A stretch of DNA of 62,981 bases from an uncultured Maricaulis sp. (GTDB lineage Bacteria > Pseudomonadota > Alphaproteobacteria > Caulobacterales > Maricaulaceae), in assembly GCF_905480005.1 (NCBI RefSeq), contig NZ_CAJQOO010000122.1, positions 1 through 62,981 on the forward strand. Reading direction: 5' to 3'. The stretch's first letter is position 1; every line of letters starts with the position of its first letter. This document shows positions 30,407-49,129 of this stretch, piece after piece. The notes beneath the pieces are model-generated. The model saw only the letters and a program-made list of their open reading frames with translations. It was not told the origin of the DNA and made no database searches. The position numbers and the translations under genes were made by a program.

Positions 30407-30664
30407 ATGGACACCCTGCCGCAAGAGGCCCAACTGGCCGTGACATCCTTCATCGCCGCCATGCTGATCGGCGGCCCTGTCGCCCTGATCGGGGCCGGCA
30501 ATGCCTTTGCCATCGCCCGCTGGACCGGGGCATTCATGCTGCGTCGCCGGCTGGCGTCCAGCGCCCTTCTGGGCCTGGTCGGCGGCGCTGGCGTGTTCGG
30601 ATCCGGCCTGTTTGGCAGTCCGGGACTGGATATCGCCGCACTGATCGGTCAGGCCTTCGCCTAG
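30407..30664 (+). CDS. Small two-helix membrane protein of unknown function
   Basis: An 85-residue protein with hydrophobic segments at about 12-35 and 50-80, the second very Gly/Ala-rich. A basic loop, MLRRRLAS, lies between them. GGGAGG is 6-11 bp before the ATG, so translation is well supported. No family recognised. It is divergent from the antiporter (65 bp between starts) and overlaps the convergent next gene by 4 bp. Confidence 0.72.
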   Translation: MDTLPQEAQLAVTSFIAAMLIGGPVALIGAGNAFAIARWTGAFMLRRRLASSALLGLVGGAGVFGSGLFGSPGLDIAALIGQAFA

Positions 30665-31191
30665 AGCGAGCCCTCGTCGGAGTGAACCAGATCGAACCCG
30701 ATCGTGCGACCGCCATAATCGCCGTTCTCGTAGAGATCGGCCTGGTCGTTGAACCAGGCAATCAGATGCGCCTGCAAGCGCTCGAACACGATCGTCAGCG
30801 CCGACTCGCCAAGCGGCAGCTCCAGATCGAAAACCGGACCATTGGCGATCGCGATCTCGACATGATGGCCCTTCTTCGCACAGGACAGGACGAGACGCGT
30901 CCAGTCACCCGTGCGCGAGACTTTCACTGCCAGTCCGAAACTGATGACGCCAAGCGGCAAGAAGCCCTTGCCCGACACCGAAAAAGCGCCGGACCGGTGC
31001 GGTTGCGGTGACCACGCACCTTCCGGCGGGACCAGGTGGACGCACACCTTGTCACCCGACCCGAGAAAGCGGCAGAATCCGGTCGAGACATTCTCGGCCA
31101 CCGAACGGATCACCGCATAATTGTCCAGCGAGCACACCCCATAGCGCTCCGCCGCATCGGCAAGCTCGTCAAACCGGCTCTTGTCGCGCAT
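30661..31191 (-). CDS. Cytoplasmic protein of unknown function
   Basis: A 176-residue soluble protein without signal or membrane segment. It has alternating beta-like stretches in the middle (GAFSVSGKGFLPLGVISFGLAV, shortened) and a C-terminal amphipathic helix around FERLQAHLIAWFNDQADL. Four cysteines are scattered. I considered PilZ but its RxxxR and D/NxSxxG motifs are missing. It is divergent from the GDPD gene, with 62 bp between the starts. Confidence 0.7.
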   Translation of the reverse strand: MRDKSRFDELADAAERYGVCSLDNYAVIRSVAENVSTGFCRFLGSGDKVCVHLVPPEGAWSPQPHRSGAFSVSGKGFLPLGVISFGLAVKVSRTGDWTRLVLSCAKKGHHVEIAIANGPVFDLELPLGESALTIVFERLQAHLIAWFNDQADLYENGDYGGRTIGFDLVHSDEGSL

Positions 31192-32850: not shown

Positions 32851-33438
32851 ATGACCGAGCATGACCGCAATCAATACGCCCTGTCTTTCGGCGCCGTCGC
32901 GATGTCGGCCATTGCGCTCCTGTTCGCCTTCCTGGAATTGCAATCGTCTGATCGTCAACTCGACGCCTCGGTCTGGCCCTATGTCGACACCACTTTCACC
33001 CTCAATTCCGAAGCCGGGAGCCTGACCCTGTCCAACAAGGGGCTTGGGCCGGCCCTCATTCATGAATTCCGGGTCCTGTATGAGGGCGAGCTCGTCCGTC
33101 ATCCGATGGAATTGCCACAATTTGCCGAGCTCGTCGGGGATTACTCCGTGACCACGGCATCCGTGCCGAGCTCGGTCCTGTCGGTCGGTGAGGATCTGGT
33201 TGTGTTCGAAGTGCGCGGCGATGATGCTGGCGAGCGCATGCAGTCCGCGTTGCGCGGCCTGGAGCTGGAAATCTGCTATTGCTCACTGAATGGCGCTTGC
33301 TGGAGCAATGCCTCCGAGGTCAATTTCCGTGAGCCCGTGGAGGCCTGCGCGGTGCAGGATGTCGACATTGACGATGCGCTGGATGTCCTCCGGGATATCC
33401 ACTCGCCCGCGGACCAGACACAGGAGAATGAGGGATGA
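32851..33438 (+). CDS. Membrane-anchored 'CYCS' protein A (unknown function)
   Basis: A 195-residue protein with one N-terminal helix (about 10-30) and a probable periplasmic domain. It is a paralogue of the protein at 48109: both carry DASVxP/KASVMP after the helix, an N(K/T)GLGPA motif (62-68 here), and a C-terminal CYCS-x4-CW-x8-REPV-x2-C motif with identical spacing (Cys142, 144, 150, 166). I know of no described family with this motif. The ATG at 32851 lies before the helix; the frame is open from 32800. It overlaps the following small membrane gene by 4 bp. Confidence 0.8.
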   Translation: MTEHDRNQYALSFGAVAMSAIALLFAFLELQSSDRQLDASVWPYVDTTFTLNSEAGSLTLSNKGLGPALIHEFRVLYEGELVRHPMELPQFAELVGDYSVTTASVPSSVLSVGEDLVVFEVRGDDAGERMQSALRGLELEICYCSLNGACWSNASEVNFREPVEACAVQDVDIDDALDVLRDIHSPADQTQENEG

Positions 33439-33746
33439 GTCGACGCCGCTTTCTCGAACGCACGCGCCGCAATCGCGAAGAACAATCCCGGGCCGGTCGC
33501 AGCTTCAACCCGGCGACGATGATCCGGCTCGCCTTCTTCGGCGTTGCCATCGTGGTCGCAGCCGCTGTCTATATCGGTTTCTGGCGACAGGGCGAGACGA
33601 TCTATGACGGCCCCTGGGGCCTGCTGCAGCGTCTGATCACACCGCTCTTCCTCGGCATCAATGCCCTGGAGCTGATTGTCATTGCGCTCGGTGGACTGGT
33701 TGCCTGGCGTATCTGGCTGCAGATGAAACGGCCACGCCAGCCCTGA
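33435..33746 (+). CDS. Small membrane protein coupled to CYCS protein A
   Basis: A 103-residue protein with a very basic N-terminus (nine Arg in the first 22 residues) and two helices (about 29-48 and 68-95). The basic start predicts a cytoplasmic N-terminus. It overlaps the CYCS gene by 4 bp (ATGA) and is surely co-translated. The second CYCS locus is likewise followed by a small membrane protein, though I see little sequence identity between the two. Function unknown. Confidence 0.74.
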   Translation: MSRRRFLERTRRNREEQSRAGRSFNPATMIRLAFFGVAIVVAAAVYIGFWRQGETIYDGPWGLLQRLITPLFLGINALELIVIALGGLVAWRIWLQMKRPRQP

Positions 33747-48108: not shown

Positions 48109-48729
48109 ATGAAACTGCAGCACCGCATGATCGAGCTGATCGTGGCTGTGAGTGTCGTTGTCATCTCGCTCGCATCCCTCTTCGTCGCGGTCTACCAGGG
48201 CATCGTCATGGACCGCACGATGAAGGCATCGGTGATGCCGGTCATCCAGGTCGAAAGCGGCAATATCGATGATGACCGCGAAACCTGGGTAATGACAATC
48301 AACGTCAAGAATACCGGGCTTGGCCCCGCCGAAGTCCGCTATTTCAACATGTATTGGGGCGGCGAAATCATCCATGACACCTCGGTTTTCATTGCGCGCT
48401 GCTGCCTTCCGGAAGAAATCCCGGCCGATGAACGCCTGCCCTTTGTCCATGACGCGTTCCGCAATGGTCAGTTGAATCTTGTGTTCGACAATGTCCGACG
48501 CCGCTTCCTCGCTCCCCAGGAAGACATCGACTACATCGCCTTCGACCGACCGGATGCCACAACCCAGCCGCTTGGCCACGCGCTTTGGGACTCCCTCGAC
48601 GCCGTGCGCCATGAAATGAGCTATGAAGTCTGTTACTGCTCGGTCTTCGATGATTGCTGGCTGGCGCGCTTCCCGGAGCACAGCCGCGAACCGGTTCGCC
48701 AATGCATTGATCCGGCCATTGCGGACTGA
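48109..48729 (+). CDS. Membrane-anchored 'CYCS' protein B (unknown function)
   Basis: A 206-residue protein with an N-terminal helix (about 8-32) and a probable periplasmic domain. It is a paralogue of the protein at 32851: KASVMP, NTGLGPAEV (68-76) and CYCS-x4-CW-x8-REPV-x2-C at Cys175, 177, 183, 199, without a gap relative to the other copy. It has an additional pair Cys98-Cys99. Identity outside these motifs is low, so the duplication is old. A small membrane protein follows 31 bp downstream, as at the other locus. Confidence 0.8.
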   Translation: MKLQHRMIELIVAVSVVVISLASLFVAVYQGIVMDRTMKASVMPVIQVESGNIDDDRETWVMTINVKNTGLGPAEVRYFNMYWGGEIIHDTSVFIARCCLPEEIPADERLPFVHDAFRNGQLNLVFDNVRRRFLAPQEDIDYIAFDRPDATTQPLGHALWDSLDAVRHEMSYEVCYCSVFDDCWLARFPEHSREPVRQCIDPAIAD

Positions 48730-48760: not shown

Positions 48761-49129
48761 ATGACCTCCTCGGAACCCCGCTTCAAATCGCTCCTCATTC
48801 GTCTGGCCGCCCTCATCGGGACGCTCGGGCTGACCGCGCTGATTGTGTGGGCCGTCCAGGCTGGCGACTTCGGAGCCGCCGGTGACTGGCTGACACATCA
48901 TCCGTGGGGCCTGGTCACGCTTGCCGATCTGTATTTCGGCTTTCTGATCGCGGCCATTTTCATCGCTGGAATCGAGCGGGACTGGCGCTGGGCCTTATTC
49001 TGGATTTTGCCCCTTCCCCTTCTGGGCAATGTCTGGGCCGGCCTTTGGCTTTGCCTCCGGGCCGGTCGTGTCTGGAACACGCTGCGCGGTCGGAATGGCC
49101 GGGACACACAACAAAACCGCCCCGAGTGA
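48761..49129 (+). CDS. Small membrane protein, DUF1475-like
   Basis: A 122-residue protein with three hydrophobic segments (about 10-32, 46-70, 74-98) and a basic C-terminus. The segment HPWGLVTLADLYFGFLIAA followed by a Trp-rich stretch and LLGNVWAGLWL resembles DUF1475, an unknown membrane family; the match is from memory of the pattern. I chose the ATG at 48761, directly after CYCS protein B. The frame is open from 48623. Confidence 0.72.
   Translation: MTSSEPRFKSLLIRLAALIGTLGLTALIVWAVQAGDFGAAGDWLTHHPWGLVTLADLYFGFLIAAIFIAGIERDWRWALFWILPLPLLGNVWAGLWLCLRAGRVWNTLRGRNGRDTQQNRPE

What the first reader, a model, noticed from the sequence alone, without database searches (positions are those of the whole stretch)
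32851..33746. CYCS locus A: uncharacterised membrane protein with a fixed Cys4 motif coupled to a small membrane protein
The protein at 32851 ends in CYCS-x4-CW-x8-REPV-x2-C (33274-33348). A second gene 15 kb away (48109) carries the same motif with identical spacing, along with NxGLGPA and ASVxP in the same order after an N-terminal helix. Elsewhere the two are very different. Four cysteines kept at fixed spacing in divergent paralogues imply a metal site or paired disulfides in the periplasm. I know of no described family with this motif. The adjoining gene overlaps by 4 bp, implying a two-protein complex.
Basis: partly seen in the sequence, partly recalled or inferred. Interest (0 to 1): 0.72.

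Follow-up and report, generated by a model that had tools for sequence, protein, structure and literature searches.

The report
Unnamed four-cysteine membrane protein family
The gene belongs to a real but unnamed bacterial family: a small protein held in the membrane by one helix, with a sandwich-like domain carrying four cysteines that are kept together; it often sits inside operons of essential genes, and its job is unknown.

Summary
A (32851-33438) and B (48109-48729) share a Cys4 motif and clear homology (BLASTP E 8e-11). Their family is in 89 of 200 genomes of the order, and also in Gammaproteobacteria, one Verrucomicrobia and one Saprospiraceae record. No Pfam or NCBIfam model claims it; the one clear profile relative is phrog_35671, function unknown. 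AlphaFold gives one membrane helix plus an Ig-like beta-sandwich. In 136 rows found without selecting for the motif, all four cysteines are present; REPV is not conserved. Outside the membrane helix, cysteines number 4 (99 members), 4 plus a CC pair (18) or 5 (1). This favours two periplasmic disulfides over a metal site.

A Cys4 member beside a phage portal gene and a cysteine-less relative between phage tail genes suggest an accessory, possibly phage-excluding, envelope protein. Function is not shown.

The parts
32851..33438 (+). Gene A: 195-aa single-helix membrane protein with an Ig-like domain and the Cys4 motif
   Evidence: translation; family profile E 6.2e-43; AlphaFold pLDDT 89.1
32857..32970 (+). 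N-terminal helix of A (residues 3-40), holding the membrane segment
   Evidence: AlphaFold secondary structure
33274..33348 (+). Cys4 motif of A: C142, C144, C150, C166
   Evidence: kept in 136 measurable family rows not chosen by the motif
33435..33746 (+). Adjoining 103-aa membrane protein (P0003), overlapping A by 4 bp; kept in the genus with or without A
48109..48729 (+). Gene B: 206-aa paralogue, Cys4 motif at 48631-48705 plus an extra CC pair (residues 98-99 in the B clade)
   Evidence: AlphaFold pLDDT 95.2; one clade in the tree, support 100/97
48761..49129 (+). 122-aa membrane protein 31 nt downstream of B; relatives lie next to B in other genomes
   Evidence: tblastn; no Pfam hit

Best explanation
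A and B are members of one unnamed family of single-pass inner-membrane proteins. A short N-terminus and one long helix anchor an Ig-like beta-sandwich, most likely on the periplasmic side. The four cysteines sit on the last hairpin and just after it: Cys2 ends one strand and Cys3 starts the next, so they face each other across the hairpin, and Cys1 and Cys4 are left to pair. I infer two disulfides that staple the C-terminal edge of the sandwich, with the domain working as a membrane-tethered binding domain for an envelope partner. The genes are accessory: copies come and go, are under purifying selection while present, and travel in constitutive operons (pheS-X-pheT, pdhC-X-lpd, dctA-X) that supply steady expression. 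Shown: family, fold prediction, cysteine pattern, contexts, loss of A. Inferred: topology, disulfide pairing, binding role.
For: Homology of A and B. AlphaFold models at pLDDT 89.1 and 95.2 place C142/C144 at the end of strand 137-144 and C150 at the start of strand 150-154 in A, and C175/C177 and C183 likewise in B. Of 150 rows found without selecting for the motif, 136 have all four cysteines; of the other 14, nine are distant relatives lacking the motif as a whole and the rest are truncated or split copies. A profile without the Cys region finds matches in 90 of 200 genomes, the same tally as the full profile. Cysteines beyond the membrane helix: 4 in 99, 6 in 18 (always an added adjacent pair), 5 in 1 of 118 members; seven other window proteins carry 20 Cys in 2760 residues, which would predict roughly 138 extra Cys in 19,572 residues against 37 seen. 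A distant relative, L319, has only a Cys2/Cys3-like pair. dN/dS is 0.10-0.18 for A and 0.10-0.20 for B. Contexts. Remnants of A.
Against: Topology is not settled. Net charge favours N-in in 42, the reverse in 21 and neither in 30 of 93 members, and cysteine-less relatives often have positive residues after the helix. The window proteins used as a cysteine baseline are a convenience sample. The 118-member set is partly motif-selected. No model coordinates were available, so Cys-Cys distances were not measured. L319's spacing differs by one residue and it is a single case. No binding partner is known.
Confidence: 0.55

Rival explanations
1. The four cysteines form one metal site (Zn or Cu) in the periplasmic or cytoplasmic domain, and the protein is a metal sensor or carrier.
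For: All four cysteines come and go together (136 with all four, nine cysteine-less relatives), as one four-ligand site would. C-x-C plus two further Cys can bind metal. Foldseek lists methane/ammonia monooxygenase subunits and a Cu(I) chaperone among weak matches.
Against: No unpaired extra Cys in 117 of 118 extramembrane domains and extra Cys only as CC pairs, which fits an oxidising compartment. The structure matches are generic (no E of 0.001 or better). L319 keeps only two of the four. Neighbours seen are not metal genes.
Confidence: 0.2
2. An obligate two-protein complex of A with the adjoining P0003.
For: 4-bp overlap in the window and adjacency in the seven genomes that carry A.
Against: P0003 is in 18 of 19 genomes of the genus, an A orthologue in 7. 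In G018 and G010 A is decayed while the P0003 frame is open. In five further genomes examined the gap upstream of P0003 shows no A remnant (best E 0.018). B and the pheS-pheT copies lie next to other genes.
Confidence: 0.08
3. The family is an envelope-level exclusion protein of phage origin (like SieA in effect) that bacteria took into housekeeping operons.
For: A Cys4 member lies directly upstream of a portal gene and a head maturation protease gene in an IMG/VR contig. A cysteine-less relative sits on the opposite strand between tail genes in Pseudomonas phage vB_PaeS-D14H, and both it and P0001 match phrog_35671 (E 1.4e-7 and 5.6e-9). Turnover of copies. [quoted passage not shown]
Against: Only one Cys4 member in 2.9 million viral contigs by pattern scan and none in 50,697 phage records with three queries. 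No PADLOC model beyond one weak match of 25 members (E 0.05). The pheS-pheT placement looks stable across genera, unlike a defence gene. No sequence likeness to SieA was tested.
Confidence: 0.15
4. A function tied to phenylalanyl-tRNA synthetase, such as tethering or stress sensing.
For: pheS-X-pheT in 71 of 137 Cys4 rows and 46 of 80 named loci, all on the same strand; one member follows asnS (L141).
Against: A and B and 40 other rows lie elsewhere, including between pyruvate dehydrogenase E2 and lpd genes (L122, L130). A domain with disulfides could not reach a cytosolic synthetase.
Confidence: 0.05

Closest known systems
phrog_35671 (PHROGs v4, unknown function)
   Same: P0001 matches it at E 5.6e-9 over residues 9-126 (helix and most of the Ig-like part); 13 of 25 family members match at E up to 0.1
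   Different: The match stops before the Cys4 motif in P0001, and the phage protein P0004 that also matches it lacks the motif
Ig-like beta-sandwich domains such as ApaG (1xq4), TRAP subunits, adaptin ears
   Same: Same general sandwich: VIA Z 6.2 (rmsd 3.0, 86 aligned) for A and 6.0 (rmsd 3.5, 91 aligned) for B against 1xq4
   Different: Z under 8, no Foldseek E of 0.001 or better in the PDB, and no sequence relation
P22 SieA superinfection exclusion protein
   Same: Inner-membrane protein, phage-borne, diverse in sequence (abstract of PMC10883804); here only an analogy
   Different: No sequence comparison was made and no exclusion activity is known for this family

Membership tests
phrog_35671 | Profile match to the family HMM | tested here: met
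   P0001 E 5.6e-9, residues 9-126; P0002 only 0.012
phrog_35671 | Absence or presence of a Cys4 motif in the profile's own members | not tested
   Profile members not seen; the match to P0001 ends before the motif
Any curated Pfam-A or NCBIfam family | Score above the curated cut-off | tested here: not met
   P0001 and P0002: no family at E up to 1; 95 members: best E 0.0058 (Pfam) and 0.021 (NCBIfam), no family in more than 4 members
Ig-like fold | Predicted beta-sandwich with structural match | tested here: inconclusive
   Confident models; best Z 6.2 and 6.0 against ApaG and TRAP among others
Superinfection exclusion proteins (SieA-like) | Blocks phage DNA entry when expressed | not testable with these tools
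   Only context evidence
Known anti-phage systems (PADLOC) | Profile match | tested here: not met
   25 members scanned: a single match at E 0.05
Obligate partner pair with P0003 | The two genes occur together | tested here: not met
   18 of 19 against 7 of 19 genomes of the genus; decayed A beside open P0003 frame in G018 and G010

The most novel reading that the evidence does not exclude
A previously unnamed class of disulfide-stapled, membrane-tethered Ig-like proteins, spread between phages and bacteria, that acts at the inner membrane to exclude phage or other foreign DNA entry, and that marine Alphaproteobacteria have fixed inside pheS-pheT and other essential operons so that it is always expressed and hard to lose.
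Probability: 0.13. Interest if true: 0.7.

Novelty: new variant of a known kind. Interest (0 to 1): 0.42.

Why it matters
It defines a family with a rigid four-cysteine signature that Pfam and NCBIfam lack and points to a gene placed inside one of the most conserved translation operons, pheS-pheT, across many genera. Why an exported-looking protein is fixed there is an open and testable question. It also corrects the idea of a two-gene complex at locus A.

Tried and rejected
Metal site: kept as a rival, not preferred, because of the even cysteine counts. Obligate complex with P0003: rejected on presence/absence and on decayed A copies. Known family: no confident hit in Pfam, NCBIfam, PADLOC or PDB sequences; Foldseek on the PDB gave no E of 0.001 or better for either model. 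The viral structure library gave two matches better than 0.001, both without a named function and with low TM-scores.

REPV as part of the motif: dropped (10 of 137). Plasmids: one weak Cys4-query hit, a Sphingomonas plasmid at 22%, not followed further. Literature: searches for the motif strings and for three combinations of related terms found nothing on this family; two searches returned no paper, one search listed seven by title and abstract start only, and none was opened. Searches (Maricaulis with pheS/pheT, 10 of 98 papers listed; superinfection exclusion, 8 of 33 listed) were seen as listings; of all papers only PMC10883804 was opened, and only its abstract and outline were read. No claim that the family is absent from print goes beyond these searches.

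Biases to keep in mind: the 80 named loci are the best 80 of 263 and were found with a CYCS-containing pattern, so Cys1-3 there prove nothing. The unselected counts come from whole-genome searches that mostly cover one order, and rows with identical cores were merged (188 hits to 150 rows). The 136 include fragments, for example the distal half of a stop-interrupted B copy in G002. My working note said '52-ish' pheS-pheT loci; the recount is 46 of 80 plus one cut off at a contig end.

Full report
What was checked. The window holds gene A at 32851-33438 (195 aa) and gene B at 48109-48729 (206 aa) with the motif as described, and the neighbour P0003 at 33435-33746 overlaps A by 4 bp. A and B align at E 8e-11 with 25% identity. 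A third member lies on another contig of the same genome. Contigs that names Maricaulis have the same lengths as contigs of the window's genus, so the genus is Maricaulis.

Family and distribution. A profile of 25 members and then of 95 was searched. In the order, 90 of 200 genomes have a match; 89 of these have a Cys4 member and one (G059) only a distant cysteine-less relative. Wider draws give 4 of 289 genomes of the class, 11 of 299 of the phylum and 3 of 229 of another class, that of G480, in the same phylum; some of these matches are cysteine-less. In named genomes, 263 stretches encode relatives; the 80 kept are mostly Alphaproteobacteria and Gammaproteobacteria, with one Verrucomicrobia and one Saprospiraceae record. 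Pfam and NCBIfam have no confident match. phrog_35671, of unknown function, matches P0001 at 5.6e-9 over residues 9-126.

Cysteines. In 150 merged rows that were not chosen by the motif, 137 were labelled Cys4 and 136 show all four cysteines (the other is a split copy, L146). The remaining 13 rows are nine cysteine-less distant relatives and four truncated or split copies. Y in CYCS, the S and the W vary a little (CFCS, CYCA, CYCT, CF, CY). Residues between Cys3 and Cys4 number 13-20 and REPV is in 10 of 137. A profile built without the Cys region gives the same tally of 90 of 200 genomes, so the motif is not an artefact of the query. In 118 members (partly motif-selected) the part beyond the membrane helix has 4 Cys in 99, 6 in 18 and 5 in 1; every added pair is an adjacent CC. 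In cysteine-less relatives the site reads like I-x-Y-x-S-I-Y-G. One distant relative, L319, has a Cys2/Cys3-like pair only.

Structure. AlphaFold gives A pLDDT 89.1, pTM 0.74 and B 95.2, 0.83: helix 3-40 (A) or 2-41 (B), then a beta-sandwich. Cys2 ends the strand 137-144 (A) or 170-177 (B), and Cys3 starts the next strand (150-154 or 183-188). PDB comparison gives only generic Ig-like matches, best Z 6.2 and 6.0. Charge bias supports N-in weakly: 42 against 21 of 93, 30 neither. Two disulfides in the periplasm are inferred, not shown.

Neighbours. Of the 137 Cys4 rows, 71 lie between pheS and pheT, 3 more touch one of them, 16 are B-type, 7 A-type and 40 elsewhere. Of the 80 named loci, 46 are pheS-X-pheT on one strand, and L143 has pheT but starts at a contig end. 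Other places include between pyruvate dehydrogenase E2 and lpd genes (L122, L130) and after asnS (L141), named here from the look of the protein sequences, not from a family scan; pheS, pheT, L20 and IF3 were likewise named by eye and then traced by tblastn. The tree of 93 rows puts A in one clade (100/100) inside a mostly gammaproteobacterial group (99/98) and B in one clade (100/97), so A, B and the pheS-pheT copies are old lineages and not recent duplicates.

A and its neighbour. P0003 matches in 18 of 19 genomes of the genus (missing in G007, 69% complete) and weakly in one other genus. An A orthologue (E below 1e-50) is in 7 of 19. In G018 and G010 the interval holds decayed pieces of A (best E 1e-6 and 1e-8 in a search of that interval alone), while five other intervals show none (best E 0.018). 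The P0003 frames examined in 11 genomes are open, 97-103 aa; in G010 it begins with GTG. A and B are under purifying selection (dN/dS 0.10-0.18 and 0.10-0.20) but evolve faster than the aspartate-semialdehyde dehydrogenase gene next door (0.05-0.08); several dS values exceed 1 and are rough. B copies are interrupted by a stop or truncated in G002, G010 and G014.

Phage links. One Cys4 member lies directly before a portal gene and a head maturation protease gene in IMG/VR contig L275. A cysteine-less relative in Pseudomonas phage vB_PaeS-D14H stands on the opposite strand between tail genes J and I, a place typical of independently expressed cargo genes (recalled), and it matches phrog_35671. 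Cysteine-less relatives are also on plasmids of Photobacterium, Vibrio, Klebsiella and Catenovulum. Against this, three Cys4 queries found nothing in 50,697 phage records, and PADLOC has no clear match.

Verdict. A real, unnamed family; the cysteine claim stands and is sharpened; the complex with P0003 is not supported. The most likely reading is an accessory inner-membrane protein with a disulfide-stapled Ig-like binding domain. An exclusion role of phage origin is the boldest reading left open.

Noticed in passing
G000:C187:11839-12402 (L002, L268) and loci such as L069, L083: A third family member lies between pheS and pheT; this placement holds in 46 of 80 named loci.
   Followed up: yes
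window 48761-49129: A 122-aa membrane protein downstream of B without a Pfam match; relatives lie near B in other genomes.
   Followed up: partly
window 33435-33746: P0003 is kept in nearly the whole genus between a cold-shock gene and the aspartate-semialdehyde dehydrogenase gene, function unknown.
   Followed up: partly
L067, L011, L098, L106: Two family genes in tandem between pheS and pheT.
   Followed up: no
L122, L130, L141: Family genes between pyruvate dehydrogenase E2 and lpd genes, and directly after asnS.
   Followed up: no
L275:336-1001: A Cys4 member directly upstream of a phage portal gene.
   Followed up: partly
window 30407-30664 (+) and 30661-31191 (-): Two short open frames without a Pfam match.
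   Followed up: no
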